Origin: Pelagomonas calceolata
Taxonomy: Eukaryota > Sar > Pelagophyceae > Pelagomonadales > Pelagomonadaceae
Assembly (NCBI GenBank): GCA_918797485.1
Contig: CAKKNE010000001.1
Coordinates: 5,580,001-5,644,000 of the forward strand
Direction: 5' to 3'
DNA: 64,000 nt
Below the pieces are notes generated by a model. It did not search any database. It saw nothing but the letters and a program-made list of their open reading frames with translations, and was not told where the DNA came from. Made by a program: the position numbers and the translations under genes. Positions 3,785 to 63,345 of this stretch are shown piece after piece. Within the stretch, counting starts at the first letter, position 1, and every line of letters begins with the position of its first letter.

Positions 3785-3812
3785 GCTAGCGTCCTGTAAG
3801 ACACTAGCAAGC
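3785..3812 (-). promoter_or_regulatory. CTAG palindrome promoter element, copy 1
   Basis: GCTAGCGTCCTGTAAGACAC followed by TAGCAAGC. It lies 89 bp upstream of the FHA start and about 160 bp upstream of the divergent EEP gene. Same family as the copies listed below. Confidence 0.6.
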
Positions 3813-3972
3813 AGCCGCACTTCTTTCGGCTGCCCGACCGTAACCCCTTGCTTCCAGGACGTCTCTGCGGACAGCTGCGCTAGTTTAGAACATGCGTCAC
3901 TAGGCTCAGACAGCCGCGAACAGTGCCGTCGTTGCGTGGACTCGTTCCCTCGTAGCGCGATGGCCTCCTAAT

Positions 3973-5364
3973 ATGGAGCCCATGGCGGTGAGCCCCCCAG
4001 CGGCCGGTGGGCCATGGACACCGCGGACGGGCTGGGGCGGCCAATGGGGGACGCCCGTAATGGCTTCTGGTGGGGAGGCTCGGGCAGCCGAACGCTGGCC
4101 CCAGACCGTCACCCCGCCGCCCGCCCAGGCGCGGCTCTGGGGCACGCCGCCGCCGCCGCCCGGGCACGTGGCCGCGACGCCGCCGGCGCCGAGCATTATT
4201 GCCCTCCACGCGCAGCACTACCCGCGCCGCTGGGTCGAGGCGCCGCGCGATGAAAGGGCGCGGGCCCGCTTCGCGGTGGCGACGCTCAACCTCGAGGCGG
4301 ACGCGGCCAAGAGCGCCGGCCACTCGAACGGCCGGCGCGACGGGTCCAGGCCCGCCGGCGAGGACTGGGAGGCGGCCTTCGCGGCGCTGGACCAGGCCCT
4401 CGTGCACCTGCCGGACGTGTTATGTCTGCAAGAAATGCAGCGCTGCACGCGGCACGACTGCCCGCATTGCGCCTCTGGACGTTGCAGCCTCGACCACGCC
4501 TCCAAGCTCCACGCGAAGCTGCTGGGAGAGGGCTTCGACGGCGACTACAAGAGGGATGGGAGGCCCCTGACGGTCGGCCTCTACGTGCGGGTGCGGACCT
4601 TCGCGCTCGAGAGCAAGGTCCGCACGGTGCGCTTTGCCTCGGGTAAGGGAGCCGTCCTGGCGGTCGCGCGGCACCTCGGCACGGGTCAGCGCGTCGCCTT
4701 AGGCTCGGCGCACCTCGAGGTGCCGCTGCGCAACGGGCAGCCCATGACCAAGGCTCAAGTCGCCTCGGCGGCGCAGCTCCAGGCCGCGCTGGCGAGCTAC
4801 TGGGGCCGCGCGGCCGTGCCCCTGCCGGTTATAGTAGCAGGCGACTTCAACACCCTCTCCTACAAGCACTGGGATCCCCGGATCGCGCCACCTGACGCCT
4901 TCGAGCAGTTGACGTCCCCAAAACCGTCCGCGAAGAAGCGGGCGGGCGCGGACCGCGGCGCGTGCAGATTACCGCTACGGTCGGCCTACGCGGACGTGCA
5001 GGGCGCCGAGCCGTGCTACACGTCCGTGGACCCGGCGTTCCCCCACTGCATCGACTACGTTTTTTACCACGGGCAAGGTCTCCGGCCGTCCCGTGTATTA
5101 GGCGTCGTCGACCGTAAGCAACAGCTGCCCGTGGCGCCGTGGCCGTCGGACCACCTTTGTCTCGTTGCGGCCTTCGACCTCACCGGGACCGGCGACAACC
5201 CCACGGGAAGGCCCTCGGGCAGCGCCTACCACGTCCGGCCGCCGCAGGGCCCGTCGCCGTGCAAGTTCGGCGACCGGTGCCGCTTCTTCGCCCGGGGCTG
5301 CTGCCGCAACTACCACCCCCAAGTACCAATCGAGCCCCTCGGCGACCACAACTGGTACTACTAG
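3973..5364 (+). CDS. CCR4/nocturnin-like EEP nuclease with C-terminal CCCH zinc finger
   Basis: 463 aa. The endonuclease/exonuclease/phosphatase fold is shown by LCLQE (residue about 151), a central SAHLEVP strand, GDFNT (about 289), CIDYVFYH and PWPSDH (about 391), the metal-binding and catalytic set of CCR4-type deadenylases and nocturnin. A cysteine/histidine cluster near residues 430-448 (C-x5-C-x6/7-C-x3/4-H) is a CCCH-like finger, which fits RNA binding. The first 80 residues are Pro/Gly-rich. The likely role is trimming of RNA or a phospho-substrate; which one cannot be read from sequence. Single exon; divergent from the FHA gene. Confidence 0.8.
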   Translation: MEPMAVSPPAAGGPWTPRTGWGGQWGTPVMASGGEARAAERWPQTVTPPPAQARLWGTPPPPPGHVAATPPAPSIIALHAQHYPRRWVEAPRDERARARFAVATLNLEADAAKSAGHSNGRRDGSRPAGEDWEAAFAALDQALVHLPDVLCLQEMQRCTRHDCPHCASGRCSLDHASKLHAKLLGEGFDGDYKRDGRPLTVGLYVRVRTFALESKVRTVRFASGKGAVLAVARHLGTGQRVALGSAHLEVPLRNGQPMTKAQVASAAQLQAALASYWGRAAVPLPVIVAGDFNTLSYKHWDPRIAPPDAFEQLTSPKPSAKKRAGADRGACRLPLRSAYADVQGAEPCYTSVDPAFPHCIDYVFYHGQGLRPSRVLGVVDRKQQLPVAPWPSDHLCLVAAFDLTGTGDNPTGRPSGSAYHVRPPQGPSPCKFGDRCRFFARGCCRNYHPQVPIEPLGDHNWYY

Positions 5365-5537
5365 GCCGCGCGCAAGCGCGGCCCTTGATCAAGCCCCTTG
5401 CTTGACCATTTTATGGTCTTCTCTTCGGCGCGGCCGCCCCGTCACACGGGGCCGCCGCGCCACGCTGTACACCCCCCCAAAAAAAAAGCCAACACGCAAA
5501 TTTCTGTTCATCAATCAAGACCACACAAGTAAGTATA

Positions 5538-7889
5538 TTATGTCTCCATGCCCGGGAACTGGACCGTGATGGCGTGCCCTTCTTTCCGACACGCGCGCGC
5601 GACGACGTTGAGCGCGAGGCGCTCTCCTCGAAACGCGACGGCGGACGTGTCGTTGAAGAGGCCGAAGCCGCGCACCTTTTCGACGTCGCAGAACCCCGCC
5701 GTGCTGAGCGTTCGATTTAGTAGATCGAAGTCGACGGCAGTTCTCTGGAACATGAGCTCCGTCAGCGCGTCCCGCTCGGCCGGCGCAAGGTCGTCGCGCG
5801 CCAGAAAGGCCGACAGCACCTTCATGTCCGGCGCGCTCAGGAAGAAGGCGCCGCCCGGTTGTAACACGCGCCACCACTCTTGGAGGACATGCAATGATGG
5901 CGGCGCCTCCTCGAGTGTCTGGGCTTCGGCGTAAATCGCGGCCACGGACGCGTCCTCGAAGTCCTTGAGATTGTCCAATTGTAGGACGTGGTCTACACTC
6001 TCACCTGGTACAGTGTGGACGTTGCGCCAGCCGGCCTTGTGCGTTTGGCCATGTATTCGTAGTAGTATCGCTTGGGACTCGTTTCCGTCGTGGACGTCGT
6101 CGATGTCGAATCTTGATGCATGTTGCGCGTCCTTGACGACGACGTGGGCGTTGCCATGAGAAAAGGCCTCGTAGGCCGCGTGTAAGGCATGAGAGAATGA
6201 TCTAGCCCACCTTTCAGTATCGAAGAGCGGCGCCGCGGTCAGGCGCTTCTTCAGTAACGAACGGACAGCTATCAATCTTCTAGAATCGCTTTCAAGTGAA
6301 GCAGCTAAACTCTCGTAGTCTCTCAGAGACAACGCCTCCGTGTAAGCTGATAGGCGCACGGCCCGTAACGCCGTCGCACCCGCGCGCGCCTCCATGCGAT
6401 TCCCAGCTAATGAGATAGACGGAACTTGAGCCCACAAGCCGTCCTGCACTACCGAATGACCCGACTTGACGATAGAGTCCAACATCACATCTAAATGACT
6501 CTTCTGCCACACATGGTCGAGCCAGGGTGCCATTTGGATGAACTCCAATCTTGAAGGATGCACACCTCGCGCCGCCAATTCCTCGCGCAGTCTCGGTTCG
6601 GCGAGGTCGTGCAAGGCGTAGCGCATCAACCTGAGTACGGATCTCTTGGAACTTCGTCGCAGGATGTTCGCCCACACATCAAAAATCGTAGAATCGAGCT
6701 TCTGGAAGGACGATAAGGAACCGAAGGCGAAACCGGAAGTGTGGTTCACGTCCTCCGCTGTAGCTCGCGGTCGCGATAGAACGGAACCCACGAGATTAGC
6801 GTGGTCGGCCGGCAGATACGACTCAGGAAGCATGATGAGTTTCTCCGTGAATTCCCTCGACGCTTGTTCAGGTACGGCCACGACCTTGTCGGCCACTATA
6901 GAATTGATGAACGACGCGCCTGTCGTCTGAGGCCAGCCGCAAAAGCTCAACCTTAGTACATTTGACAGTGAAGGGTGCGCTAATAGCGGTAAACCACTAT
7001 GTAAGGTGTGGCCGTGCAAATCAATAATGACGTCCAGGTCATCTCCGAGGAACCTCGATGCGGCCTTCACTGGACTATACGTATCGCCCAGATCCACGAA
7101 TCTATCCAGGAGCGTATCGGACACGTTCCGCCGCCACCAAGAATCACCAGAACCGAGAGAATAAACACGTACGTCACAGTGCGCGTCCAGCGCCAGCAAT
7201 GCCCCTCTTAAAGTCGCAGAGACGGGATGGGCTCCGAAGTCCGAAGTAACGAACCCGACGCGCAGCTTGCCGCGTTTTCGACTTGTTGGTGATGACGGAA
7301 CACCATCAATACTGGACGCGTGGGGCTGGTGCCTCGCGAGCTCCCTCAACACATCTAGAGGTAGTCGAGCAGCAACATGAGCCACCCCGAGGCCTTCCGT
7401 GGAAGAAGCGTCCTGCGCGACGGCCTCGACGGCGTAGTCGAAGCCGGCCCAGTCCGCGACCCAGGCTTTCGCTTTCACGAGCTTGGCCAACGCGTCCCGC
7501 GCCGTCGCGCCGTCCCCGGTCTTTATGGCCGCGTCGTTCGCGTTCGCGAAGGCCGCCGTCGCCGCCGGGATCTGGAACGCGCTGAGTAACGACGCTCCCA
7601 GGTGCAGCCAGCTCCGTGCATCATGAGGATCGTGCTCAACAGCGGCCAGGAACGCGTCGCGCGCGCCTCCGAGGTCGCCCCTTTGGAAGCGGGCCCATCC
7701 TAAGAAATGGTTGAATGATGGTTTCTGGCCGTCCTCTCCATGGCTGTCGAGCTGTGCTTGCGCTAGTTGTGCTACCGCGTTCGCGTCTCCTGATGCGTGG
7801 GCTTCGACTATGCGACGTCGCGCGTCACTGCCCTCGTCGTAGCGCTGCCAGGCCGCGGCGACCGCGACGACGGTGACAAGTTTCCGCAT
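5538..7889 (-). CDS. GT41 (SPINDLY/OGT-type) protein glycosyltransferase fused to a methyltransferase-like domain
   Basis: 783 aa. A short hydrophobic N-terminus (MRKLVTVVAVAAAW) is followed by TPR-like helices (about 50-170). From about residue 205 the catalytic GT41 region runs: LRVGFVTSDFGAHPVS, DLHGHTLHS, LRLSFCGWPQTTGA, GFAFGSLSSFQKLD and the nucleotide-sugar lobe (DVMLDSIVKSGHS). Members move GlcNAc or fucose to Ser/Thr. The last 190 residues add a domain with EEAPPSLHVLQEWWRVLQPGG and LSAPDMKVLSAF, the late motifs of class I SAM methyltransferases; the usual glycine-rich SAM loop is hard to see, so activity is doubtful. The leader, if real, would place this enzyme in an organelle rather than the cytosol. 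Confidence 0.8.
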   Translation of the reverse strand: MRKLVTVVAVAAAWQRYDEGSDARRRIVEAHASGDANAVAQLAQAQLDSHGEDGQKPSFNHFLGWARFQRGDLGGARDAFLAAVEHDPHDARSWLHLGASLLSAFQIPAATAAFANANDAAIKTGDGATARDALAKLVKAKAWVADWAGFDYAVEAVAQDASSTEGLGVAHVAARLPLDVLRELARHQPHASSIDGVPSSPTSRKRGKLRVGFVTSDFGAHPVSATLRGALLALDAHCDVRVYSLGSGDSWWRRNVSDTLLDRFVDLGDTYSPVKAASRFLGDDLDVIIDLHGHTLHSGLPLLAHPSLSNVLRLSFCGWPQTTGASFINSIVADKVVAVPEQASREFTEKLIMLPESYLPADHANLVGSVLSRPRATAEDVNHTSGFAFGSLSSFQKLDSTIFDVWANILRRSSKRSVLRLMRYALHDLAEPRLREELAARGVHPSRLEFIQMAPWLDHVWQKSHLDVMLDSIVKSGHSVVQDGLWAQVPSISLAGNRMEARAGATALRAVRLSAYTEALSLRDYESLAASLESDSRRLIAVRSLLKKRLTAAPLFDTERWARSFSHALHAAYEAFSHGNAHVVVKDAQHASRFDIDDVHDGNESQAILLRIHGQTHKAGWRNVHTVPGESVDHVLQLDNLKDFEDASVAAIYAEAQTLEEAPPSLHVLQEWWRVLQPGGAFFLSAPDMKVLSAFLARDDLAPAERDALTELMFQRTAVDFDLLNRTLSTAGFCDVEKVRGFGLFNDTSAVAFRGERLALNVVARACRKEGHAITVQFPGMET

Positions 7890-7935
7890 CGTGGCGCTGC
7901 CCCACGCCTTGTGGGCTGCCCAAGACGACGCTTAA

Positions 7936-7957
7936 TGCTAGCGCCTAAAGCTAGCGC
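7936..7957. promoter_or_regulatory. CTAG-type repeat, degenerate copy
   Basis: GCTAGCGCCTAAAGCTAGCG in the 200-bp gap between the divergent GT41 and RING-ligase starts. It has the doubled GCTAG of the element but lacks the TCTTAC centre. Confidence 0.35.
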
Positions 7958-8089
7958 GCCGAATTGTCCTGTTGCTGGACAAGCGGAGGCGCTGCGCCCG
8001 TCTTTGCCGCCCTTGACCGACGGGATCGCGCCGCGCGCCAGCCTGAGGTAGAGGCGCGGCGTTCCCGCGGCAGCCCCGGCGGCCCGAAG

Positions 8090-9850
8090 ATGAGACAGCC
8101 CCTGTTAGCAATAATCTTGACTGCGGCCGCGGGTGACCCCATCGTCTACCACGTGCGCAACGTGCTGGACGGCGTCGAGCCCATCTGGGTGCGCAGCCAG
8201 CAGGACGACGCCGCGCAAGCGCTCTTCACGGCAGTAGCAAAAAATAATCTCCTCAGACGGCCGCCCATCGAGGAGGGCCAGACGAGCGCGTGGTACTTCT
8301 TCAAGGAGACGGACAAGAGCTTTTCGCGGTTGTTGGGGCGCTTGACGGTGGGCGCGAACGGCGTGCAGAACCAGACTAGAGTTGCGGCTTGTGGCACGCG
8401 GGACGCGCGGCGGTCGGAGGCGTGTGCCGGTTTTCTGACGGAAGACGCACTAGCAGCGAGGGAGACGCAGTTCCAGGCGTCGGCGGCGTCCTTGGATGCG
8501 GATGACGCCTTCTCGAGGTTACTACTGGGTTGTGCTTTAGCTGATGCCGGGGATCTACCGTCCTCGATAAGGGAACTCGAAACGGCGAAGAAGCTAGCTG
8601 GAAGAGATGCGAACATCGCCGAAGCACTGGCTAGAGTAGTGGTCGCCGCTCGTGTCTTGGAAGGCGGCGACGGCACGGCCATAAACGCGGTGAGAAAAAT
8701 GGGTGTAGGGGATGTGGATGCGGCCATCACGACGGGCGCGGCCCTCGCGCAACGCATGGCCGGGCGCCATTTGAGAGATGAGTGTGCGAAGAGCGACCCT
8801 GATGTGGCCCTCGTCGCGAAGATGCTCGCGGCCGGCGCCGACGCCGGGGAGAGAGACGCGCATGGCCGGACCGCGGTCATGCTCGCCGCATCCGAGAAGC
8901 ACGCGCATTTGGTGGAGACGCTCTGCGCGTATTCCATGCCGTTCCCGGAAGACGCGGCCCACGCCGCATTAGCGTCGGAGCACGATGCAAACGTCGTGCG
9001 CGCCTTGGAGCGCGCCTGCGGTTATGTGATTCAAAAGCCGCCCCGGGAAGCCGTGGGGAAGCAATTGGTTCGTTTTGTAAAGAGGTGGGTCCGGGCTTTG
9101 AAACGGCGCATTACGGTGACGCTCGATGCTGATGTTTCGATAGGCTCGCTCCTGTGGGCTTTATTAGCCGTCGGCGTCGCGGTCCTCGCGGTTGATAAAT
9201 CGTGGTTTGGTAGGGCGAAGGCGCCGGTCCCGCGCGCCGACGAGGAGCCCCTGCGACGCCGACCTTCGACCGAGTCCACGACGTCGCTGCGGACGCACGC
9301 CGACGCACCGACGTCGCGGCGCGAGTCGTCGCCGCCGCCGGGCTTGGAGGCGCCGCGGCCGCCGCCGCACGAGTCGCCGCAGGGCCGCGAGCGCCGCGGG
9401 CGCGAGTCGCCGCGCAGTACTACGGCCCCGCCGCCGGAGCCGCGGCTCAGCGTCGGGGCGCGCGCGCGGCTGCGCCGCGAGCGCGAGCGCGCCGCGGCCG
9501 AGGCCGTGGCGGTCGTGGAGACCGTGAGCGACCCCCCAACTCCGGAAAGGCCCGAGCAGGGCGAGCTGGCCGCTTTACAGGCCCTCGACGCGCGGCGCCT
9601 CTCGCCCGCGGCGCTGGACGCGTCCATGGAGCTCCTGCCCGATCTGTTGAGAAGGTGCGCGATCGAGCGCGCGCGGCGCGCGGCGGCCGAGGACGCCGGG
9701 ACGGAGTGCGTCGTGTGCCTCGAGGACGCGCGGTCCGTGGCGTTTGGGTGCGGCCACCTCTGCGTCTGCGAGGCGTGCGCGCCGACGGTCGTCGCGTGCC
9801 CGCTCTGCCGGGAGCCGGTCCGCGCGAAGCAGCGGATCTACTTTGACTGA
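8090..9850 (+). CDS. membrane RING-type E3 ubiquitin ligase with ankyrin-like region
   Basis: About 586 aa from the chosen start, which opens with a signal-like leader (MRQPLLAIILTAAAG). The middle has helical repeats including an ankyrin-like unit (DAHGRTAVMLAASEKHAHLV, nt 8860-8930), then one transmembrane helix (nt 9138-9195, GSLLWALLAVGVAVLAV), a Ser/Arg/Pro-rich low-complexity stretch and a C-terminal C3HC4 RING (nt 9703-9830: CVVCLEDARSVAFGCGH, CxxC, CPLCREPV) of the kind found in MUL1/IAP-like E3s. The likely role is membrane-bound ubiquitylation with the RING on the cytosolic side. An in-frame ATG upstream at 7964 is less likely because it would bury the leader. Confidence 0.75.
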   Translation: MRQPLLAIILTAAAGDPIVYHVRNVLDGVEPIWVRSQQDDAAQALFTAVAKNNLLRRPPIEEGQTSAWYFFKETDKSFSRLLGRLTVGANGVQNQTRVAACGTRDARRSEACAGFLTEDALAARETQFQASAASLDADDAFSRLLLGCALADAGDLPSSIRELETAKKLAGRDANIAEALARVVVAARVLEGGDGTAINAVRKMGVGDVDAAITTGAALAQRMAGRHLRDECAKSDPDVALVAKMLAAGADAGERDAHGRTAVMLAASEKHAHLVETLCAYSMPFPEDAAHAALASEHDANVVRALERACGYVIQKPPREAVGKQLVRFVKRWVRALKRRITVTLDADVSIGSLLWALLAVGVAVLAVDKSWFGRAKAPVPRADEEPLRRRPSTESTTSLRTHADAPTSRRESSPPPGLEAPRPPPHESPQGRERRGRESPRSTTAPPPEPRLSVGARARLRRERERAAAEAVAVVETVSDPPTPERPEQGELAALQALDARRLSPAALDASMELLPDLLRRCAIERARRAAAEDAGTECVVCLEDARSVAFGCGHLCVCEACAPTVVACPLCREPVRAKQRIYFD

Positions 9851-9880
9851 CATAATCTTTTTTGTCCTGTAGTTGTTTTT

Positions 9881-9906
9881 TTGCTAGTATCTCTACGCCG
9901 CTAGCT
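9881..9906 (+). promoter_or_regulatory. CTAG palindrome promoter element, degenerate copy
   Basis: TTGCTAGTATCTCTACGCCG then CTAGCT; the centre reads TCTCTAC rather than TCTTAC. It lies about 130 bp upstream of the next start at 10035. Confidence 0.5.
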
Positions 9907-10034
9907 TTTTCCGTCTGCTCTTTTCCTGCCGTATCCAGCTCGTCTTGCTGCACAACAGCCGCGCTATACAGTCAGAAACCGAGACACACACCACTAACAA
10001 CTTCTGCGCCTTCTGTCGCGCGCGGCTCGGCGGG

Positions 10035-13278: not shown

Positions 13279-13337
13279 GGGTGTAGTCTTCGGGCGCGGC
13301 TAAGTATAGAGTAGGTCTATGAAACCTGAGGAGTATT

Positions 13338-13356
13338 CTAGTGTCTTACAGGCCAT
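13338..13356 (+). promoter_or_regulatory. CTAG palindrome element, half copy between convergent genes
   Basis: CTAGTGTCTTACAGGCC followed by ATCGATGCG instead of GCTAGC. It is the one clear copy lying between two gene ends rather than upstream of a start. Confidence 0.4.
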
Positions 13357-13427
13357 CGATGCGACCAGTGGGGACTACTAAGACTCTAGTAAGAGACTTC
13401 GGTATTTATAAGTGCGGGACACGCGAA

Positions 13428-21097: not shown

Positions 21098-21125
21098 GCT
21101 AGCGTCATGTAAGATACTAGCAAGC
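21098..21125 (-). promoter_or_regulatory. CTAG palindrome promoter element, copy 2
   Basis: GCTAGCGTCATGTAAGATAC then TAGCAAGC. It is 55 bp upstream of the small-protein start (21043) and about 130 bp upstream of the divergent dioxygenase gene. Confidence 0.6.
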
Positions 21126-23476: not shown

Positions 23477-24045
23477 CTTTGTTTTGTTGTGCGGCTGCTT
23501 CTATGGGCGCGCGGTTTCGGACCTGCGTGGCGGAACGGTCCGCTTCGGCCGGCGGCGCGGCGACGGCGCGTTCTGTGGGCGGGAGTGGTTTCTCTGGTCG
23601 CTTCTTCATGTCGTGTGGGCTGTGCGCGCGGCGCAGCCTTGCGCGGGCGCGCAGCAGCGGTTTTGAGGCTGCTTTGGTTTTGAGCCGAGAACGCGCGCGC
23701 TGGTGGATTTTGAGTGTTGCGCGCCGAGCAGCGGATGCAGGTGAGAGGAATATTGACCTCGACGCAGGCTGGCCACGGATAAGCTGCGCTAGGACGTCGG
23801 TACGTTCAAAATGGATTGTCCTGCCGCGCCCGCTCTCTGGGCTAGTGGCGGTACTACGCTAGCGTCGCAGTTGTTTAAAAATTGAACGCGTCTGCAGCGC
23901 GCGTCAGGTGTCCCTGGGAGACACATGAAACTTCTAGGCGGCCGACCGGGCCTCTGGGCGGGCCAGTACGTATGAGACGCGAGGACGCAAGCAGTAGTGT
24001 AATGAGATCTTAAGTACGACATGATAGCACGCGTCCAGGCCAGCT
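23477..24045. other. 570-bp stretch upstream of RPA2, no gene seen
   Basis: Open frames here are low-complexity. It contains a degenerate CTAG palindrome at 23841-23863 and the 3' flank of the FoP gene. Confidence 0.45.
23841..23863. promoter_or_regulatory. CTAG-type repeat, degenerate copy
   Basis: GCTAGTGGCGGTACTACGCT then AGC. The ends match; the centre is rearranged. It lies 365 bp upstream of the RPA2 start. Confidence 0.35.
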
Positions 24046-24636: not shown

Positions 24637-25053
24637 GATATCTGTTTGCGCGCCGGGGCTGGACTCTTAGCCTTGCCGCCGCCGCCACCGGAACCTGCTC
24701 GCCGACGGCCCATGACTTCTGTGGCACTGCTGGACGGTGAACAAAGCTGCCACGCGTAAGCAGAAGGCCTCTGGAGCGAGCACAAGCCGCAACAGAGATG
24801 TCGAGCCCGATTTGGCAGCGCTAGCGCCTTACACGACGCTAGCGCAGGCCGATTGGCAAAGTCGAGGTACGGCCCCACGAGCGAGCCGGGACGACAGTGA
24901 ATAGGCGCTGGCAGTCCTTCTTGACCAGCCCTTCCATCGCTCAAACGACTGGGCGCGCGCCGACCCCCCAGCAGGCGCGCACAGCCGTGCACCCTGGAGC
25001 CGCCCGGAACGCAGCGCGGCGCGCGGCCACCCGTAGACAGGGAAGGAAACAGC
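24637..25053. other. divergent promoter region with CTAG palindrome
   Basis: The 417-bp gap between the FoP and MAD1 starts. Only the palindrome at 24820-24843 was recognised. Confidence 0.5.
24820..24843. promoter_or_regulatory. CTAG palindrome promoter element, copy 3
   Basis: GCTAGCGCCTTACACGACGC then TAGC. It is 184 bp upstream of the FoP start and 211 bp upstream of the MAD1 start. Confidence 0.55.
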
Positions 25054-30677: not shown

Positions 30678-30705
30678 CTTGCTAGTGTCTTACCGGCCGC
30701 TAGCT
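30678..30705 (+). promoter_or_regulatory. CTAG palindrome promoter element, copy 4
   Basis: CTTGCTAGTGTCTTACCGGC then CGCTAGCT. It is 64 bp upstream of the Cys-rich gene and 266 bp upstream of the divergent ACBP gene. Confidence 0.6.
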
Positions 30706-32384: not shown

Positions 32385-32950
32385 GGTCGCGTCGCGGGGC
32401 AGCCCGGTGCTATCGGTCTGCGGGGCAGCCCGGTCCGCGCGTCTCGCGGTCGCTGGCGCTGCGGTGGCGTCTAGGGAGTCCGACTGAATGTCACTAGGCC
32501 CGCGGTGGTGTTTGGGCGTGCTTTTTGGGTGCTTTTGCCTTGGCAAGCGCCTCGCGCTAGGCCGGGGGCATTTGGAACGGACCTGAAGGCAGCCCGACAG
32601 GCGCGAACCGGCGACGACGGGCTCGGGAGGAGAGGTAACGCGACGCATCCTTCCCAGGTAGAATTCGTCGCACGGATCCTAGTGTCTTACAGGACGCTAA
32701 GCAACATCTTGGGTCGCGCTCTCCGCGGTTTTTTAGAGGCGCACTCCTCGCACCTGTGGTGGCAGCATCACATTTTGATTGCCAGAGATCACACGTTCCG
32801 CTTGCGCTTGCTTTTGCCGCGTAAAAACGCTTAGAAAGCGGAAACGCCGCCGGCGCTGTGCAGCGCTGCGAGTTACAGCACGCGCACGCATTTACTCACC
32901 GCCGCCGCGGCCCAACGAGACGCAGCGCTACAGCTGAAGAACTACAAAAG
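32385..32950. other. divergent promoter region with CTAG palindrome
   Basis: The gap between the RSP3 and PH-domain starts. The minus frame is open but unlikely to be coding. It holds the palindrome copy at 32678-32701. Confidence 0.45.
32678..32701 (+). promoter_or_regulatory. CTAG palindrome promoter element, copy 5
   Basis: TCCTAGTGTCTTACAGGACG then CTAA; the outer GCTAG/CTAGC pairing is partly lost. It is 294 bp from the RSP3 start and 250 bp from the PH gene start. Confidence 0.5.
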
Positions 32951-46301: not shown

Positions 46302-46919
46302 GAATGCTGGTCTCCTTTACGCGCCGCGCGCGCGTTGCTGAAGTTGCCTTGTGGTGCGAATTCGATTGTATGGGCAGCGCACGCACGTGAACGCTCCAAG
46401 AACTTTGCGTAAGAGCTGCAGCGCTACGCGCACGTAGCTTCTATAGCGCCAGGTCCACGAATAGAGCCTGCTACAGCCCGTTTCCTGTCGTCTCCTGCAA
46501 ATTTGAGTCTAGCTAGCGGCTGTAAGACACTAGCAAGCAGCAAGGCCCAGGATCGCTTCCCGCCCGGCCAAGGGGTCTCTTGATCCCCCATCCGCGCGGG
46601 ATTGCTCTCAACCTATCGACGGTTTGCTCGATTATTTTGCCGCACTGAGTCGTTTGGAGCTCACAGCTACTCACCCAAGGGCTTTCAGGTGTCGCCACTC
46701 CCTGAGAAGGAGGCTGTGTATACGTATTCTCGCGCCACGCGCCCGCCGGTCTCGACGCGTCGCCCCTGAATAGCGCGGAGCACTCGAAGCTGTAAGTGCC
46801 CGGCCTAAAAAGTCTGCGCCCGCGCGCCGCGCGACACCCCCAGGGCACTGACGCGACGCCCCTCGCCCATCTGACCGCCGCCGCCGCCGTGGACGCGCCG
46901 CCGCACCGTCTGACCCCAG
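46302..46919. other. 620-bp region between divergent genes, holds a CTAG palindrome
   Basis: Besides the palindrome at 46512-46538, a good donor GTAAGT lies near 46793 and an acceptor CCCCAG at 46914-46919, so part may be the 5' UTR/first intron of the bromodomain-like gene. No ATG-opened exon was found. Confidence 0.4.
46512..46538 (-). promoter_or_regulatory. CTAG palindrome promoter element, copy 6
   Basis: GCTAGCGGCTGTAAGACACT then AGCAAGC. It is 211 bp upstream of the Smr-protein start. Confidence 0.6.
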
Positions 46920-52937: not shown

Positions 52938-52962
52938 TGCTAGTATCTTACAGGCCGCTAGA
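52938..52962 (+). promoter_or_regulatory. CTAG palindrome promoter element, copy 7
   Basis: TTGCTAGTATCTTACAGGCC then GCTAG. It is 144 bp upstream of the TrmB-like start and 120 bp upstream of the divergent methyltransferase gene, which are 287 bp apart. Confidence 0.6.
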
Positions 52963-55246: not shown

Positions 55247-55277
55247 GCTAGCGGCCTGTAAGACACTAGCAAGCAAG
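55247..55277 (-). promoter_or_regulatory. CTAG palindrome promoter element, copy 8
   Basis: GCTAGCGGCCTGTAAGACAC then TAGCAAGCAAG, 160 bp upstream of the RRM gene start. Confidence 0.6.
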
Positions 55278-56141: not shown

Positions 56142-56152
56142 CCCAAAACATC

Positions 56153-56617: not shown

Positions 56618-56676
56618 ACCCTACTACCGAAGCTCATCCTGTTGATGACTTGACGCGCCCGTCGCCCCGCGCCTGT

Positions 56677-56807
56677 GCTAGTGGCCCTGGGGTGCTAGGA
56701 TACGCACAACTGGGGGTACACCCAGGGTGTGGGTGTAACACCCAGGTGCTGGGGGTACCCCGGTGTACCCCCAGTCGTGCGTATCCTAGCACCCCAGGGC
56801 CACTAGC
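56677..56807. repeat. 131-bp near-perfect inverted repeat (hairpin), MITE-like
   Basis: Arms 56677-56721 and 56763-56807 pair at 44 of 45 bases and start GCTAGTGGCCCTGGGGTGCT. The 41-bp loop itself contains smaller repeats of CACCC/GGGTG. An outer CTTGACGC (56649-56656) and GCGTCAAG (56806-56813) also pair, with a 20-bp offset on the left. Non-coding. Confidence 0.85.
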
Positions 56808-56840
56808 GTCAAGCGCCTTCAAAAATAATACACACCGAGC

Positions 56841-58019
56841 TTAGGCCCCACTAATCATCGCCGCCGCGCCGAGCGCCGCGGCGCGCCGCCGCCGCCGCGC
56901 GCCGCGGCCCGGCCTTATATCGTCGTCGAGGAGGAGGTACTGGCGGTCGTCCTCGAACGGCTTCTCGGAAAGCTTCTCGAAGGCCGCGATGCGCTTTCTA
57001 ATACTAGAGACCACTCGCTTCGTCTCGCACGGCTCCGAGTCGTCCGATGATGAATCACCCGCCTGGACGCTCAACACGTCCAACTCCGCGGTGAGGATCA
57101 CTTCCTCCGCCAGACAATTCCCGCAGAGCGCCGTCTTCTGCTCGCGCACGGCCGCGATTTTGAGGGAATCTAAAGCTAACGGCGCGAGGGCGTGGCCCAG
57201 CTTCGCGGCTTGGGCCGCTTGGCCTGCCGCCGCGGCCAACGCCGCGCGCCGGTCTCCCTCTTTATTTTCTGTGGAGAGTAAGCTACAAAGCTTCATCCTC
57301 GCTTCGCCCTCCAACCTGCCCTTCTGCGCCGCTAGTATTTCGAAGCAGCGTCTTGCTGTTGTCTTGTCCGGCGGGCCGCAGACCCCATTAAAGCACGCCG
57401 TGCCCAGCTTCAGGAGCGCCGCGGGGCAATGTAAAGCTGCCGCCTTGCCTAGCGTCTCTCGTGCTTTGGGATCCTCCCTTTGTAGTTCATCAAGCCCTCG
57501 GTTGCACAGCGACTCGCGATCGCCTCTGGCGATGGCGATGTCGCGCAATCGAAGCGCCTCGTTCGGATTTTGTGGAATGCCCTCGCCCCGCATATGGTGG
57601 CCGCTCAACAGATTCAAGGCCTGGCCCGCGTCCTGCTCATTGATCTGGATCCTTTGTTCGAGCCGCTCCAACGCCTCGGTCGTCGTCTCGCAAGGCTTAA
57701 CTCCACAAAAACCGCACCGATGGTCTTTGTGTTTGCGACCACATTCCACGCAACACGTTTTACCGCAGCAGCTATTATATACAATGTCTCTCACGTCCTC
57801 GGGCAAATCACAAGCGCACGTCGCGCACGTCTTCGGTTTGACATTTCGCGGAATTTGGGGGATGACGGGTTTGGGCACCGGTTTCTTCGGTATGGCACAA
57901 GCCGGCGCGTGCCGCTTCCAGTCGTCGCGCTGGCAGTCCCTGCTACAGTACCAGGGCCCCTTGCAGCGGCCACATCTTAACTTCGCCGGCTCGGCGCAGA
58001 GGAAGCAGTAGGAGGGCAT
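56841..58019 (-). CDS. MYND zinc finger, Cys-rich and Sel1-repeat protein
   Basis: 392 aa. The N-terminus is a MYND finger (CFLCAEPAKLRCGRCKGPWY, CSRDCQ, HAPAC). Next a second Cys cluster (CATCAC, CCGKTCCVECGRKHKDH, CGFC) resembles the RING-like domain common in heterokont Sel1 proteins. Sel1-like repeats follow (ALNLLSGHHMRGEGIPQNPN, LLKLGTACFNGVCGP), then an acidic Ser-rich end. Role unknown; a protein-binding adaptor is likely. Confidence 0.8.
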   Translation of the reverse strand: MPSYCFLCAEPAKLRCGRCKGPWYCSRDCQRDDWKRHAPACAIPKKPVPKPVIPQIPRNVKPKTCATCACDLPEDVRDIVYNSCCGKTCCVECGRKHKDHRCGFCGVKPCETTTEALERLEQRIQINEQDAGQALNLLSGHHMRGEGIPQNPNEALRLRDIAIARGDRESLCNRGLDELQREDPKARETLGKAAALHCPAALLKLGTACFNGVCGPPDKTTARRCFEILAAQKGRLEGEARMKLCSLLSTENKEGDRRAALAAAAGQAAQAAKLGHALAPLALDSLKIAAVREQKTALCGNCLAEEVILTAELDVLSVQAGDSSSDDSEPCETKRVVSSIRKRIAAFEKLSEKPFEDDRQYLLLDDDIRPGRGARRRRRAAALGAAAMISGA

Positions 58020-58432
58020 CGTTTTTGGCCTCGCCGGGCAGCCCTTTCGAGCCCGATTGGCGCTGGGCAGCCTTTTGGTGCTTTTTTCCAGGCTTGCTAG
58101 TGTCTTACTGACGCTAGCAAGCGCCGTTGGCGTGCTGCAGATTTGTGGCTACTGCGAGCTTCCAGGCGCGTAGCTGCAGCTCGGAGGAGAGCTTAGTGAG
58201 GCCTTGTGCGGAAGAGAAGGAGAATCCGGGCTTCAAGCGACCGCCACGCGCTGCACAGCAACAGTTAGGCTTACCCCAGCGAAACCGCCGTGCAGCGACC
58301 GCGAGGTGCTGCTATCAGCCCGGAACTTGCATCGCCAGCCCTGCCGCGCTGCGCCGCAACCGCTGCGCACGTTATCGACGCCGGCGCCGCGTTCGTCGTG
58401 GGAGCCGTTCCGACGACGCGCACGTTATAGAG
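58020..58432. other. 413-bp divergent promoter region with CTAG palindrome
   Basis: The plus frame is open through it to 58127, but the ATG at 58433 begins the protein-like part. It contains the palindrome at 58093-58122. Confidence 0.5.
58093..58122 (+). promoter_or_regulatory. CTAG palindrome promoter element, copy 9
   Basis: CTTGCTAGTGTCTTACTGAC then GCTAGCAAGC, the most symmetrical copy: CTTGCTAG pairs exactly with CTAGCAAG. It is 74 bp upstream of the MYND gene. Confidence 0.7.
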
Positions 58433-59431
58433 ATGGCCGACGACGCCGCCGGCGCGTCGTGGGAGGAGCAGAAGGCCAAGTGGGGCGCGCGCGGCGCGCG
58501 CGGCATGCGCACCTGCGCGCCGGGCCGGGAGTGCCTCGCCGACGGCCGCACGGGCCGCCAGGCCCTCGAGGACGTTGGTGGGAATGAGGCGCCCGAGGAC
58601 GCGTTCGTCCGCGGCCTCGCCGAGGCGCGCGCGGAGAAGGAGCGGCGGCGCGCGAGCCGCGGCGGCGAGGGCTCGCGCGCGAGCCAGCGGCGCCGCAAGC
58701 GCGCCGGCGCCGGCGGCGCGGCCGCCGCGTCGGCGCCCGCGCCCGCGCCCGCTCGCGCCCCGGCGCCCGCGCCCGCTGCAGCGGCGCGCAAGCCGGTGCC
58801 CGCCGCGAAACCACGCGCGACGCCGCGCCCTCAAAAACGCCGGAGCGGCGAGACCGCGGGCGACGCGGACAAGCCGAAGCGCGCGCGCAAGTCGTCCGTC
58901 TCGGCCGGCGTGTCGTCGCTCTTCCTCACGTCGCCGACGACGCACACGCACGCGCAGTCGGCCGCCGCCGCGGCGCCGCGGAACCTGGGCGAGGGGCTCT
59001 GGGTGCGCGACACCGCCGCGGGGACCGGCGCCTCCGCCGAAGCGGGCGCGACGGTGGCCGTGCTCTACACGTGCCGGCTCCACGCGACGAACAAGCGCGT
59101 CGACCACCGGTCGAACCCGAACTCGCCCTTTACGTTCATCCTGGGCCGCGGCGCCGTCGTCGAGGGTTTGGATCGCGGGCTCGAGGGCATGGCTGTGGGT
59201 GGGGAACGGGAGCTCGTCGTGCCGGCGCACCTCGGCTACGGCGCCGCCGGCGCGCCGCCGAAGATCCCGCCCGACGCGGCCTTGCACTTCGCCATCAAGC
59301 TCCTGCGCGTCGGCGACGGCGAGGACGCCGCGAAGGGCGGCAAGCGCCGGCGCGCGCGCGGCGCGCGGGGCGGCGCCCGCGCGGCGAAGAAGAAGCTGGC
59401 CGCGAAGCTGCGCGCCGCGGGCGAGAAGTGA
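58433..59431 (+). CDS. nuclear FKBP-type peptidyl-prolyl isomerase
   Basis: 332 aa. The C-terminal 110 residues are an FKBP domain: LGEGLWVRDTAAGTGASAEA, VAVLYTCRLHATNKRVD, SPFTFILGRGAVVEGLDRG, HLGYGAAGAPPKIPPDAALH. The tryptophan at the bottom of the active site is Leu and the FD pair is VD, so rapamycin-type binding may be weakened. Before it come an Ala/Pro linker and basic clusters, and after it an RR/KK-rich tail, as in nuclear FKBPs of the FKBP39/Fpr3 type that act on histones. Confidence 0.85.
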   Translation: MADDAAGASWEEQKAKWGARGARGMRTCAPGRECLADGRTGRQALEDVGGNEAPEDAFVRGLAEARAEKERRRASRGGEGSRASQRRRKRAGAGGAAAASAPAPAPARAPAPAPAAAARKPVPAAKPRATPRPQKRRSGETAGDADKPKRARKSSVSAGVSSLFLTSPTTHTHAQSAAAAAPRNLGEGLWVRDTAAGTGASAEAGATVAVLYTCRLHATNKRVDHRSNPNSPFTFILGRGAVVEGLDRGLEGMAVGGERELVVPAHLGYGAAGAPPKIPPDAALHFAIKLLRVGDGEDAAKGGKRRRARGARGGARAAKKKLAAKLRAAGEK

Positions 59432-60375
59432 CTGCTCTACGCGGTCCGTTAATAAGCTCTAACCTTAGCTGACGCGTTGATTCGGGGGGTGGTGGTGGTC
59501 TCTCTTACCTCTTGACGTGGTCATGGGCGCCGTCGACGTGATCGCGCCGGCGGCGCAGAAGGCCCTCTTCAGAAGAACGACTTGTTCTCGTAGGTGCGGA
59601 TGGCCAGATAAAGATGTTCACGTCCCAAGCGTGGGCAGCCAAAAGTACCCTTCTCGTGGTGTAGATGTCATATACTCGTAATTGACTATCGGTGGGGTAG
59701 TATGGGGTCCAACAAGACCGCTATCACGATTACTGGGGGGCCTCGGGTAATTGACGTTTTTGACGGGAATGGGGCGCGATCGGGTCCAAATTGCACACTT
59801 TTTTCGGGGGCGGATCGGCTCCTGGAGGGCTCTCGGGGTAGGTCTGGTAGTGGGTAGTCGCCTGTGCCGCATACGCCATCGATGCGGCGGCTTAGTGCTC
59901 TCGGGGAGCTCTGGAAGCCATTACCAAGTAATTCATGCTAAATCTCCGTGGTCTGCTGAGAGAAATCGGCCAAAAAGGCTTGAAGCGCCGGCGTATGCGG
60001 TGTAGGCGCTTGCACGTGTATAGCATCGACCCTCACCCAGAGAGACCTCTTTGGCAGGGATTGACAGGATTCCACCGGCGCGGCCGCCATGGACCATGGA
60101 GGCGTCGTCGGCGCGATATTCAAAAAGCAGCTTTTTCGGCCCCCAGTACGTGTCCCATTGATCTCTTTGGACCATTAGCGAACTGAACGGTGCTCAAACG
60201 GCTGCAGGTCGTGTTTGCTTTTGCTTGCTAGTGCCTTACATGGCCGCTAGCTCGGCCGGCCATCGACAAAAAAACGACCTAAGTGGTGCAAATAAATGCA
60301 TAGAAAGCTGTGACGCGTTGCAGCTGTGACCCGCGCGCTGGCGGGCTGCAACCTACAGCGTTGCCACACAGCAGG
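59432..60375. other. 940-bp stretch, mostly non-coding, possible coding relic
   Basis: Lower GC than its neighbours. Around 59512-59592 a short run reads VDVIAPAAQKALF and, two bases out of frame, KNDLFS-stop, which looks like the end of a dead gene copy. The rest has no supported frame. The CTAG palindrome lies at 60224-60252, close to the next gene. Confidence 0.45.
60224..60252 (+). promoter_or_regulatory. CTAG palindrome promoter element, copy 10
   Basis: CTTGCTAGTGCCTTACATGG then CCGCTAGCT, 124 bp upstream of the next gene start. Confidence 0.6.
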
Positions 60376-61557
60376 ATGATGCTGCCGGCGCTCCGCAGAG
60401 CCTGCACTGCTTCACGGCTCCGCCTCGCCTCGCGCTACGCATCGGATTTCGGTAGGCGAAATGGCGGTGCCATCGCGAACAAGGCGTCAATCCTCTCAGA
60501 CGTCGACGACGCGCTGACGGGCGGGCGACCGCCAGACCTCGAAGTGCTGCTCGCCGATCATCTGACAGCGGTGGACTCGCCGGCGGCTGAATGGGCGCAC
60601 ACGCTCTTCCTGCGCTACGGCCACGTGTCCGTCCGATACACGACGTCAGATGGCCGGCAACGCGTCATGAACATTCTCGGAGGCGTCGAGGGCGCCGACA
60701 TGGTGAATATGGTGGAGCCAAGCGATTATCTCTACGGCACCCATGGCTGGGACACGTACGCGCAGCAGGGCGGCGCCTACAACCGCGACTTCGTGGGCGT
60801 CCGAGTGGAGCGGTGTGCACCGGGCGCCATCGACGCTTTGCACGCGTATTACGAGGCCCTGAACAAGCGCTCGCACATCGAAGACGGGGGCGCGCAGTTC
60901 CAGCTCGTCGACGCGCGGCTCTCGACGTTGGCAGCGCAATTGCCGCCGCCGCTCGGCCGGCTGGTCGCGGGCGCGGCTGGTCAGCTGAAGAACGCGACGG
61001 AGTTCCTCGTGCGCGGGAAGCGGTCCGCACCCGGGGCGAAGGCGCATCAAATCGTGGCCGACGAGTTTCGTCATGCCAGAAAGACCGCGGGCAACTGCGC
61101 GCAGTGGACGTCTTCAGGAATAGTATTTGCCGGGCTAATCCCCCGCACGCGCTTGTTCCCGAAATCTATTCTCATCGACTTGCTGGAGAGCGAGACGCGG
61201 CACGGGCGCGAAAAGAACGTGCACGTTATATTATACGAGCACGTCAAGGCCGCGCCGCCGTACCTCGAGGGCTTCCGGTTCAAGCGACCGGCGTTCGTGC
61301 ATCCGCTCTCGCCGGCACGAAATCTGATTTACTCAAATATGCGAGACTTCGCCGATATTATCGTGAGCGTGAAGGACGAGAGGGCAGTCGTCGACAGGAT
61401 GAAGAGCCCGCGCCGGCCGCCACCCTGGCTTCCCATGTGGCGCGCCGCGTCGGTCGGCGGCCCGACTTTGATACTCGTCGGCGCCGTCGACCACATCGGG
61501 CCCATGGGCCCCGTCGCCGCCGCGGTGTGGCTCGGGATGTGTTGGTGGTTGTATTAA
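60376..61557 (+). CDS. organelle-targeted papain-like protein of unknown function
   Basis: 393 aa with a basic, Ser/Arg/Leu-rich presequence (MMLPALRRACTASRLRLASR). YGHVSVRYTTSDGRQRVMNI and, later, GNCAQWTSSGIVFAGLI place a His and a Cys as in DUF4105/NlpC-type thiol enzymes; the family with these two blocks is conserved in plants and algae. Also present is YNRDFVGVRVERCAPGAIDA. The C-terminus is hydrophobic (LILVGAVDHIGPMGPVAAAV). Activity is inferred only from the two motifs. The stop is 22 bp from the convergent aminotransferase gene. Confidence 0.6.
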   Translation: MMLPALRRACTASRLRLASRYASDFGRRNGGAIANKASILSDVDDALTGGRPPDLEVLLADHLTAVDSPAAEWAHTLFLRYGHVSVRYTTSDGRQRVMNILGGVEGADMVNMVEPSDYLYGTHGWDTYAQQGGAYNRDFVGVRVERCAPGAIDALHAYYEALNKRSHIEDGGAQFQLVDARLSTLAAQLPPPLGRLVAGAAGQLKNATEFLVRGKRSAPGAKAHQIVADEFRHARKTAGNCAQWTSSGIVFAGLIPRTRLFPKSILIDLLESETRHGREKNVHVILYEHVKAAPPYLEGFRFKRPAFVHPLSPARNLIYSNMRDFADIIVSVKDERAVVDRMKSPRRPPPWLPMWRAASVGGPTLILVGAVDHIGPMGPVAAAVWLGMCWWLY

Positions 61558-61579
61558 ATAAGTACTGTTACACAAAATT

Positions 61580-63047
61580 TCACACAAGCTCGAGGACGGC
61601 GTCGCGCAGCCGCTCTAGATCGTCGTCCGACGTATATACCGCGTGCGAGAGGCGGAGGAAGCCTCCATCCGGGAAGCCGCCGACGGCCGCCTCGACCCCA
61701 TAGCCGTCGCCTGTGTGGAAATCAACCCATGTGTCGGGTGCACCCGACAATTCTTCACTAAGTCATTTCTCGACGATGACGCGGCCGTGCTGGCTCTGTC
61801 GAGCGATGAGGAACCGGCATCGCCACGCCATCGAGCAGGCGGCGCGTCGATGGCGTGGAGGACGACGCGAAGATTCAGCACGAACGCGCCGTAAAATTTT
61901 GATTTCCACACAGGCCGTCGCGCAGCCGCGATCGGACGGAGTCGGGGCCGACGGGCTGCCCCGGTACGTCCCGAGATAAGTCGAGGCCCGCGGGTAAGCG
62001 CACCATACCCATGGATCCGAGACACTCCTCGTGGTACGGCGCGTCGACAGACCAAGCCGCGGACAACTCGTCGACGGCGCGCCGCAGGCCTACTCGATTG
62101 AACTCCGGCGTGGCGAGCCCGTCGAGCGACCGCCAGTCGCGGAGGTACGCCAACGCCGCCGGGACCGCGCGCATCGCGGCGTAGTCCCGCGTGCCCGTCC
62201 AGCGACACTCCGCCGCGAAGTCGCCCGCTCCCCAGGACGGAACGACGTGCCGCAGCCCACGGAGCGAGTGTAGGATCGTGGCCGTCGGCGCCGCGAACGC
62301 CCACTTGTGGAGGTTGGAGAAGAAGTAGTCCGCGCCGATGGCGTCGACGTTAATTGGAACCTGCCCCAGGGCGTGCGCGCCGTCCACCGCAACTTCAGCG
62401 ACGCCGCGGCGCCGACAGAGCGCCACCATCTCGGCGACGGGGCAGACAACAGCCGGTTGCGACGAAACATGATCGATGATTACGTAGCGCGGGTCGTGCT
62501 GTTTCAGTGCTTGGTCGAGCCAGTCCAGAATGTGCGCATGCGTCGTGCCCGGGAAGGGAAACGGCCACTCCTTGACGCGCTGCGGGCCGAAGGCCGCGAG
62601 CGCCGAGGCCTTGACGCCGCCGTAGGCGTTCGCAGGCAGCAGGACCGTGCCGTCCAGCTGACACCAGCGCCGGAAGACGATCGCGGCAGCCACTGTCGCG
62701 TTCTCCACGAGTGAAGTCTCCTCAGCCGGAGCGCCGATCGCGTCGGCCGCGGCGGCCGTCGCCTCTTGCAAGTCGGCGTCGAGCGCTCCCGAAAAGTAGT
62801 CCTCGTCCGGTTGCGCGAGCCAGCGCGCACGGCAAGCCTCCGTCGCTGCTAGAACCGGCGCGGGCGTGGCCCCAAACGAGCCGTGATTCAGCCGTGCAAT
62901 GCCAGGAGCATGGTGGTCGAAGTCCGATGCGAATTTCGCAGCGCTACGGCGCGTGAAGGTCGATGAAGAGGCTGCCCTCCTTGAGATGGCTGCCCTTGTT
63001 CTAGATACAGATGGCAGCTTCGTCAAAGGAAGCGAGCGCAGGCGCAT
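61580..63047 (-). CDS. class V PLP aminotransferase (isopenicillin-N-epimerase/cysteine-desulfurase-like), two exons
   Basis: Exon 1 61922-63047 and exon 2 61580-61710 give 418 aa. Ser/Arg-rich presequence, then LNHGSFGATPAPVLAATEAC, ENATVAAAIVFRRW, IIDHVSSQPAVVCPV, VDGAHALGQVPINVDAIGAD and SNLHKWAFAAP, whose Lys holds PLP. The second exon supplies GYGVEAAVGGFPDGGFLRLS and the normal end (HAVYTSDDDLERLRDAVLEL); without splicing the frame would end in introner sequence. The substrate is unknown; this epimerase-like group acts on cysteine or related amino acids. Confidence 0.88.
61711..61913 (-). mobile_element. intact introner element, 203 bp, perfect TIR and 8-bp duplication
   Basis: Both ends read CTGTGTGGAAATCAA inward (15 of 15 bases). 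The octamer GCCGTCGC stands on each side (61703-61710 and 61914-61921). Inside are CGCCATCGAGCAG and GCGTCGATGGCGTGGAGG and a small palindrome GTCGGGTGCACCCGAC. The intron is 61711-61921: on the gene strand it begins with the first target copy (GCGACGGC, a GC donor) and ends CACACAG. No protein is encoded, so mobility would need an outside transposase. Confidence 0.95.
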
Positions 63048-63345
63048 CGCATCAATATTTTGGGCTGCGGAATGCAGCGATTTGCCTCGATACGACCGTA
63101 CGCTCTCCTGTTTTATAAATACGCTTCCGAACTTGCTAGTATGTCTTACAGGCCGCTAGCTAATTCACTGAGCCTTATTGCCAGCACGCTACAAAGCCAT
63201 ACGAGTACCGCGCGGGTGCCGTTGGAAGCGTGACGCAACCGCCGCAACGCCTTGCGCTGGAACTCTGCGCTGGAACTCGGAGTTTTGCCGCTGCATAGCC
63301 AAAAAGGCTCTCACTGTGGCAAAGGCCATCTGAGGCGCGGACAAA
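63048..63345. other. 298-bp divergent promoter region
   Basis: It contains the CTAG palindrome at 63132-63161 and nothing else recognisable. Confidence 0.5.
63132..63161 (+). promoter_or_regulatory. CTAG palindrome promoter element, copy 11
   Basis: CTTGCTAGTATGTCTTACAG then GCCGCTAGCT. It is 85 bp upstream of the aminotransferase start and 185 bp upstream of the last gene. Confidence 0.6.

What the first reader, a model, noticed from the sequence alone, without database searches (positions are those of the whole stretch)
3785..63161. A recurring 24-30 bp CTAG palindrome marks promoters across the window
The sequence GCTAGTGTCTTACAGGCCGC then TAGC, or its reverse, occurs with small changes at 3785, 21098, 24820, 30678, 32678, 46512, 52938, 55247, 58093, 60224 and 63132, with weaker copies at 7936, 9881 and 23841 and a half copy at 13338. 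Nearly all lie 50-365 bp upstream of a start codon, mostly between divergent genes; only 13338 sits between two gene ends. It is never inside a gene. The GCTAG/CTAGC arms pair and the TCTTAC centre is asymmetric, so it could be a dimeric-factor site, a core-promoter/initiator block or a domesticated tiny transposon. I know of no named element with this sequence.
Basis: partly seen in the sequence, partly recalled or inferred. Interest (0 to 1): 0.88.

Follow-up and report, generated by a model that had tools for sequence, protein, structure and literature searches.

The report
Long two-armed promoter motif in alga
In a tiny, very abundant ocean alga (by all signs Pelagomonas calceolata), thousands of copies of one unusually long, two-armed DNA word sit in front of genes and are mostly kept at the same places in a related genome, so it is most likely the landing site of an unknown protein that marks promoters.

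Summary
A ~26-bp block, TT-GCTAGTGTCTTAC-(AGG)-MCGCTAGC-T, recurs in the window and across the 32.4-Mb genome, which fits Pelagomonas calceolata (inferred). Exact left-plus-right matches: 1329 genome-wide against 0 for the reversed control. In 264 kb of contig 1, 41 sites score >=16/20 against 1-3 in shuffles. None of the 41 lies in a called gene; 20 of 42 divergent, 13 of 40 tandem and 1 of 35 convergent gaps carry one. In three contigs of a relative, 9 of 10 copies have a partner in the same gap although flanks are largely diverged. Arms stay, interiors drift. Symmetric-arm versions are rare (41 and 21 sites). That, no target-site duplications and ortholog retention argue against an RNA hairpin and a mini-transposon. 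Orientation towards the gene is 18 of 26 in tandem gaps: inconclusive, so a core-promoter role is not excluded. Best reading: a proximal promoter site for an unidentified bipartite DNA-binding factor, working like a general-regulatory-factor site. No start-site, binding or expression data were available.

The parts
3785..3808 (-). motif copy, 20/20, divergent gap
7937..7956 (-). degenerate copy: two right-type arms (CGCTAGC) 6 bp apart in the same direction, between divergent genes; below model threshold
9883..9905 (+). motif copy, 16/20, tandem gap
13337..13357 (+). left-half copy without proper right arm, 16/20, convergent gap
21098..21121 (-). motif copy, 19/20, divergent gap
23841..23863 (-). 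weak motif copy, 16/20, tandem gap
24820..24843 (+). motif copy with the rare symmetric arms GCTAGCG..CGCTAGC, 18/20, divergent gap
30681..30704 (+). motif copy, 20/20, divergent gap
32678..32701 (+). motif copy, 17/20, divergent gap
46512..46534 (-). motif copy, 20/20, divergent gap
52939..52962 (+). motif copy, 18/20, divergent gap
55247..55270 (-). motif copy, 20/20, tandem gap
58096..58118 (+). motif copy, 20/20, divergent gap
60227..60251 (+). motif copy, 19/20, tandem gap
63135..63160 (+). motif copy with 2-bp insert (CTAGTATGTCTTAC), 15/20, divergent gap

Best explanation
The element is a proximal promoter site, about 26 bp long, bound by one sequence-specific factor or a heteromeric complex that reads two unlike CTAG arms (left GCTAGTG, usually continued as TCTTAC; right MCGCTAGC) across an elastic interior of about 7-13 bp. 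It is set mostly some 100-300 bp upstream of start codons, often in divergent gaps where one copy could serve two genes. SHOWN here: the recurrence, the promoter-gap location, the asymmetry of the arms, the elastic spacing and retention at orthologous positions. INFERRED: that a protein binds it, and that binding opens chromatin and recruits the transcription machinery in the manner of a general regulatory factor. The protein is not identified.
For: Genome-wide, 1329 exact left+right matches vs 0 reversed control; 1741 of the exact left 13-mer vs 0; 3905 CTAGT..CGCTAGC vs 200. Location: 0 of 41 in called genes, 20/42 divergent, 13/40 tandem, 1/35 convergent gaps; Fisher p=1.3e-5 for 5' versus convergent gaps. 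CGCTAGC density 1.46/kb in divergent, 0.80 in tandem, 0 in convergent gaps, 0.05 in genes. Conservation ends at the block edges. Ortholog retention 9 of 10, where about 0.3 chance hits at >=15 would be expected in the 4.9 kb of own gaps (my arithmetic). Identity in 8 same-orientation pairs: motif 0.81 (arms 0.875 and 0.863, middle 0.68), flanks 0.62 and 0.54, unrelated DNA 0.48 (motif identity is inflated because sites were picked by likeness to the motif). Interior length 9-12 bp in 88 of the 100 places listed, although 0-30 was allowed. Symmetric arms rare.
Against: No binding, TSS, chromatin or expression data. 22 of 42 divergent and 27 of 40 tandem gaps lack a copy at >=16, so it is not universal. 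About 38 bits of pattern (23.8 of them fixed by the search anchors) is far above the ~14 bits needed to specify ~4000 sites, unusual for one factor; it could also mean recent dispersal. The orientation ratio (18 to 8) lies inside the range reported for oomycete core motifs, so a core-promoter role is not excluded. Symmetric left-left sites, though few, exceed their control (41 vs 2 sites). One copy (13337) lies in a convergent gap; L050 461 has no partner; one orthologous gap carries copies in opposite orientation.
Confidence: 0.77

Rival explanations
1. Core-promoter/initiator element: the block fixes the transcription start and is read by basal factors, mostly in one orientation.
For: In the even sample 11 of 13 tandem copies point with the downstream gene. 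The own-genome total of 18 to 8 (2.25) lies within the forward/reverse ratios of 1.8-5.9 of oomycete core motifs (PMC3599244, passages).
Against: Motif-centred loci give 7 of 11; two of two tandem copies in own ortholog stretches and five of five in the relative point the other way (some gene calls weak). Distance to the start codon is 107-537 bp in the 13 tandem cases, whereas oomycete core motifs peak within 50-100 nt; 5'-UTR lengths here are unknown. One gap holds opposite orientations in two genomes.
Confidence: 0.12
2. Tiny transposon or inverted-repeat relic that prefers promoter DNA.
For: Sharp ends, inverted arms, over a thousand near-identical copies; one gap with opposite orientation in the relative.
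Against: No excess of target-site duplications for words of 2, 3, 4, 5, 6 and 8 bp at 65 sites. 9 of 10 relative copies retained in the orthologous gap. Constraint is uneven: arms kept, interior freer. 24 bp is too short for a usual mobile element (general knowledge).
Confidence: 0.05
3. RNA hairpin in 5' untranslated regions (GCUAGUG pairs with CGCUAGC through one G.U).
For: The stem can form on the + reading: pairs 2-23 to 7-18 are kept in 40-43 of 43 sites (sites chosen by similarity to the arms). At pair 1-24 one site has a two-sided change to C-G, and pair 6-19 has one C-G and one T-A.
Against: Better-pairing versions GCTAGCG..CGCTAGC (21 sites) and GCTAGTG..CACTAGC (41 sites) are rare against at least 1329 asymmetric sites. 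Of 10 sites departing from G-C at pair 1-24, 8 cannot pair; pair 8-17 forms in 11 of 43. Orientation relative to genes is not fixed.
Confidence: 0.03
4. Replication-origin or recombination-hotspot mark that merely favours nucleosome-poor promoter DNA.
For: Such sites often lie in promoters in other eukaryotes (general knowledge, not looked up); nothing here excludes it.
Against: About 4000 copies, roughly one per 8 kb (extrapolated), is dense for origins; clear 5'-gap preference.
Confidence: 0.03

Closest known systems
ZNF143/THAP11 promoter site (mammals)
   Same: From passages of a preprint (PMC11118474): most binding sites lie in the upstream promoter region, the motif class is enriched in bidirectional promoters, and the factor stimulates initiation. 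That the motif is long and frequent is recalled.
   Different: Different DNA word as recalled (no alignment made); here two unlike CTAG arms with elastic spacing; factor unknown; different kingdom.
Yeast general regulatory factor sites (Abf1, Reb1, Rap1) and NRF1, M1BP, DREF, BEAF-32 sites (all recalled, not looked up)
   Same: One frequent word marks many promoters; Abf1 is bipartite with a spacer; some favour head-to-head genes.
   Different: Those words are shorter and carry less information; sequences differ.
Oomycete INR, FPR and DPEP core motifs (stramenopiles; PMC3599244, passages)
   Same: Stramenopile promoter words; the paper also mentions upstream motifs at 75-300 nt without orientation bias, which it calls probable enhancers or proximal elements.
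   Different: INR YCAYTYY, FPR MWTTTNC and DPEP SAASMMS are 7-nt words near the start site with a forward bias (1.8-2.9; 5.9 for INR+FPR), peaking within 50-100 nt of the start codon.
Introner elements of pelagophytes
   Same: The P. calceolata genome has introns with a ~210-bp peak described as introner length (PMC9481584, passages).
   Different: Introners are longer and lie in genes; this is ~26 bp, in promoter gaps.

Membership tests
General-regulatory-factor type promoter element | Enriched in 5' gaps, depleted in genes and convergent gaps | tested here: met
General-regulatory-factor type promoter element | Conserved at orthologous promoters above flanks | tested here: met
   9 of 10 copies; motif 0.81 vs flanks 0.54-0.62, with pick bias
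General-regulatory-factor type promoter element | Bound by a sequence-specific protein that makes a nucleosome-free region | not testable with these tools
   no binding or chromatin data
Core promoter/initiator | Preferred orientation towards the gene | tested here: inconclusive
   11/13, 7/11 and 0/2 in the own genome; 0/5 in the relative
Core promoter/initiator | Fixed distance to the start site | not testable with these tools
   no TSS data; ATG distances broad
MITE or tiny transposon | Target-site duplication | tested here: not met
   no excess for 2, 3, 4, 5, 6, 8 bp at 65 sites
MITE or tiny transposon | Presence/absence polymorphism at orthologous sites | tested here: inconclusive
   9 of 10 retained; 1 without partner, not examined as an empty site
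Structured RNA hairpin | Compensatory base changes in the stem | tested here: not met
   1 two-sided change among 10 variants at pair 1-24; fully pairing symmetric forms rare
Introner element | ~200-bp intron inside genes | tested here: not met
   ~26 bp, 0 of 41 in called genes

The most novel reading that the evidence does not exclude
Pelagophytes run a large share of their promoters, divergent ones above all, through a single lineage-specific 'two-armed' code read by an unknown heteromeric factor, perhaps a domesticated transposase still recognising end-like sequences of fixed left/right identity, with interior modules (TGTCTTACAGGC, TATGTCGATTA, TATGTCAATCAA, TATGTTACAGGC) giving gene-set-specific variants.
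Probability: 0.15. Interest if true: 0.85.

Novelty: new member of a known kind. Interest (0 to 1): 0.6.

Why it matters
[quoted passage not shown] A near-exact 26-bp word in an estimated 4000 copies gives a direct handle: it helps call promoters, offers a bait to pull down the factor, and can guide promoters for genetic tools. Its excess information and strong left/right asymmetry raise the question how so long a site spreads to and is kept at thousands of promoters.

Tried and rejected
RNA hairpin: rejected because better-pairing versions are rare and of 10 variants at the outer pair 8 cannot pair. Mini-transposon: no target-site duplication, retained at orthologs. Strict directionality: I first thought the motif pointed with the gene (11 of 13 in the even sample), but motif-centred loci (7 of 11) and ortholog stretches (0 of 2 own, 0 of 5 relative) took that away. 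Other promoter words: with the motif masked, GGCAGCC, AGCGAT and CGCAGCG were promoter-enriched; not pursued. Viral contigs: no exact match. Prokaryote genome collection: 5 stretches; about 6 are expected by chance for 20 fixed bases x 13 gaps in 257 Gb (my arithmetic). L050 and 1.6 kb of L049 are homologous to the own genome. L053 (inside a Streptococcus ORF, gap 9) is taken as chance; L051 and L052 were not compared with the own genome (the MAG of L051 holds a second motif-like word). In one search the reversed control outnumbers the motif in all four MAGs (166 vs 1, 37 vs 10, 35 vs 2, 4 vs 1), so counts there are not evidence; the ortholog alignments are.

Literature: two papers hold the 12-mer TGTCTTACAGGC; I saw only the listing (heart-disease markers; spermatogonial stem cells) and did not open them. 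No paper holds GCTAGTGTC as a whole word. Listings showed no title or abstract about such a motif; most were not opened. The one paper with 'Pelagophyceae' and 'promoter motif' (PMC5917014, passages) concerns a viral AAAAATGA motif. The library lacks most subscription papers.

Rows dropped: in the ortholog count I left out score-15 hits inside genes (L056 5628; L059 3863 and 5714) and all score-14 hits; L058 (relative) was not compared. The profile used 43 of 65 sites (gap 4), chosen by similarity to the arms, so columns 1-13 and 18-24 are biased upward. One search also listed score 14-15 copies with CTAGTATG; one search uses >=16 only, and 6 of its 41 sites lie outside gaps bounded by two called genes. 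One search used the 100 places listed (all + strand, contig 1) of the 3905 counted. All 20 even stretches come from contig 1.
Full report
SOURCE. The window is G000:C1:5580001-5644000 of a genome of 32,445,274 bases in 8 contigs, about 64% GC in the window, with matches to Pfam families MAD (mitotic checkpoint), Glyco_transf_41, ATP-dependent DNA ligase and MGDG synthase, a plastid-lipid enzyme. This fits Pelagomonas calceolata RCC100: 32.4 Mb in six nuclear contigs plus plastid and mitochondrion, 63% GC, 16,667 genes, 0.45 introns per gene (PMC9481584, passages). The species name is an inference, not a label from a tool.

THE OBSERVATION. All 15 places listed were read and carry the sequence or a weak form of it. 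In the window plus 20 evenly spaced 10-kb stretches of contig 1 (264 kb), 41 sites score >=16, 26 of them outside the window, against 3, 1 and 1 in three shuffles; at >=14 there is no excess. Genome-wide counts on both strands against the reversed pattern: TGTCTTACAGGC 457 vs 3; GCTAGTGTCTTAC 1741 vs 0; with the exact right arm within 12 bp 1329 vs 0; CTAGT-N0..30-CGCTAGC 3905 vs 200; CTAGTATGT-N0..16-CGCTAGC 172 vs 1. The 26 sites in 200 kb of contig 1 extrapolate to roughly 4000 copies (my arithmetic, assuming the other contigs are alike); the window is denser than the sample (15 in 64 kb).

ANATOMY. In 43 aligned copies the conserved block runs from TT before the left arm to a T after the right arm; beyond about -4 and +26 columns are near background (the scored columns are biased by selection, the flanks and columns 14-17 are not). 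Between CTAGT and CGCTAGC, 88 of the 100 listed copies have 9-12 bp (51 of them 11) although 0-30 was allowed. TTAC is present in 69 of 100; others carry interiors such as GTGTCGATGA, ATGTCAATACA or ATATCTATAGA. The arms are seldom alike: GCTAGTG..CACTAGC occurs at 41 sites (82 strand hits vs 4 in the reversed control) and GCTAGCG..CGCTAGC at 21 (42 vs 34), against at least 1329 asymmetric sites.

LOCATION. Genes were called by hexamer-scored ORFs. None of the 41 sites is in a called gene although these cover about 70% of the 264 kb. Of gaps over 30 bp, 20 of 42 divergent, 13 of 40 tandem and 1 of 35 convergent carry a site (Fisher p=1.3e-5 for 5' gaps versus convergent); 6 of 41 sites lie outside gaps bounded by two called genes. 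Distance to the start codon in tandem gaps is 107-537 bp (median 160, 13 sites); in divergent gaps the medians are 211 bp on the motif's 3' side and 177 bp on its 5' side, with wide outliers (21 sites). In 28 motif-centred loci, 34 sites gave 19 divergent, 11 tandem, 0 convergent, 0 with midpoint inside a gene (one, L030, overlaps a called start by a few bases) and 4 undetermined. Orientation with the gene in tandem gaps: 11 of 13, 7 of 11, 0 of 2 in own ortholog stretches and 0 of 5 in the relative. The own total is 18 of 26: inconclusive, and comparable to the forward bias of some oomycete core motifs (1.8-5.9).

ORTHOLOGS. The prokaryote genome collection returned a contig filed under a marine 'Spirochaeta' MAG (L050) that is syntenic with own contig 6 at 83-94% identity, that is, a misbinned relative. 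Two more contigs of the same MAG (L056, L057) match own contigs 3 and 6 at 76-87%. Aligning the three pairs, 9 of 10 relative motif copies have an own partner in the same gap, 8 in the same and 1 in opposite orientation; L050 461 has none. Conversely all 9 own gap sites at >=15 have a partner. By the shuffle rate at >=15, about 0.3 chance sites are expected in the 4.9 kb of these own gaps (my arithmetic). In the 8 same-orientation pairs identity is 0.81 in the motif (left arm 0.875, middle 0.68, right arm 0.863), 0.62 and 0.54 in the two 40-bp flanks, and 0.48 for unrelated DNA under the same aligner; because sites were picked by likeness to the motif, the motif value is inflated. At L050 4290 recognisable alignment begins at the motif edge. 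Partners such as CTAGTATCTTTATACGCTAGC and CTAGTGTGTCTTACAGGCCGCTAGC show arms held while interior and length drift.

RIVALS. A mini-transposon predicts target-site duplications; no excess at 65 sites for words of 2-6 and 8 bp. An RNA hairpin predicts compensation and tolerance of better pairs; symmetric, better-pairing forms are rare, and of 10 sites departing from G-C at the outer pair one is a two-sided change to C-G, one a G-T pair and 8 cannot pair. An initiator predicts a preferred orientation and a fixed distance to the start; orientation is inconclusive, distances to the start codon are broad, and start sites are unmapped, so it stays as the leading rival. A proximal factor site explains location, asymmetry, elastic spacing and retention.

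MECHANISM. Shown: recurrence, promoter-gap location, asymmetric arms, elastic interior, orthologous retention. Inferred: a bipartite protein or heteromer binds the two arms and, like general regulatory factors, opens chromatin or recruits initiation for one or both neighbours. Unexplained: the information is far above what about 4000 sites need (38 against 14 bits; 23.8 of the 38 are fixed by the search anchors), and one orthologous gap holds opposite orientations. These two facts keep a mobile or domesticated origin open.

NOVELTY. I found no paper describing this motif: two papers hold the 12-mer by listing only, with unrelated titles, not opened; none holds GCTAGTGTC as a whole word; the topic searches listed nothing on it, though most listed papers were not opened, and most subscription journals are not held. 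By analogy it works like ZNF143-type or general-regulatory-factor sites (passages; yeast and fly examples recalled). I file it as a new member of that kind, with unusual length and arm asymmetry.

Noticed in passing
L050, L056, L057 (contigs of MAG 'Spirochaeta sp.' MED672) and L049:2043-3615: Contigs in marine bacterial MAGs are syntenic with or homologous to the window's algal genome at about 76-96% identity: misbinned pelagophyte DNA, useful as a comparative genome.
   Followed up: partly
L050:299-455: A ~157-bp sequence with about 39 matches at 80-88% identity listed across the own genome (a lower bound), likely an introner-type element.
   Followed up: no
L057:1432-1545 and 2251-2400: Short interspersed repeats with many genome copies in both orientations; the two hit the same places on opposite strands, so they are partly each other's reverse complement.
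   Followed up: no
promoter gaps of window and L009-L028: With the motif masked, GGCAGCC (1.34/kb in promoters vs 0.26 in coding), AGCGAT, CGCAGCG and TCGCTGCA are also promoter-enriched words.
   Followed up: no
L003:1496-1556 and L044:734-791: Two motif copies within about 40 bp of each other, in the same (L003) or opposite (L044) orientation.
   Followed up: no
L050:5352-5374 versus L054:2685-2708: Orthologous gap holds the motif in opposite orientation relative to the same gene in the two genomes, implying inversion or replacement.
   Followed up: partly
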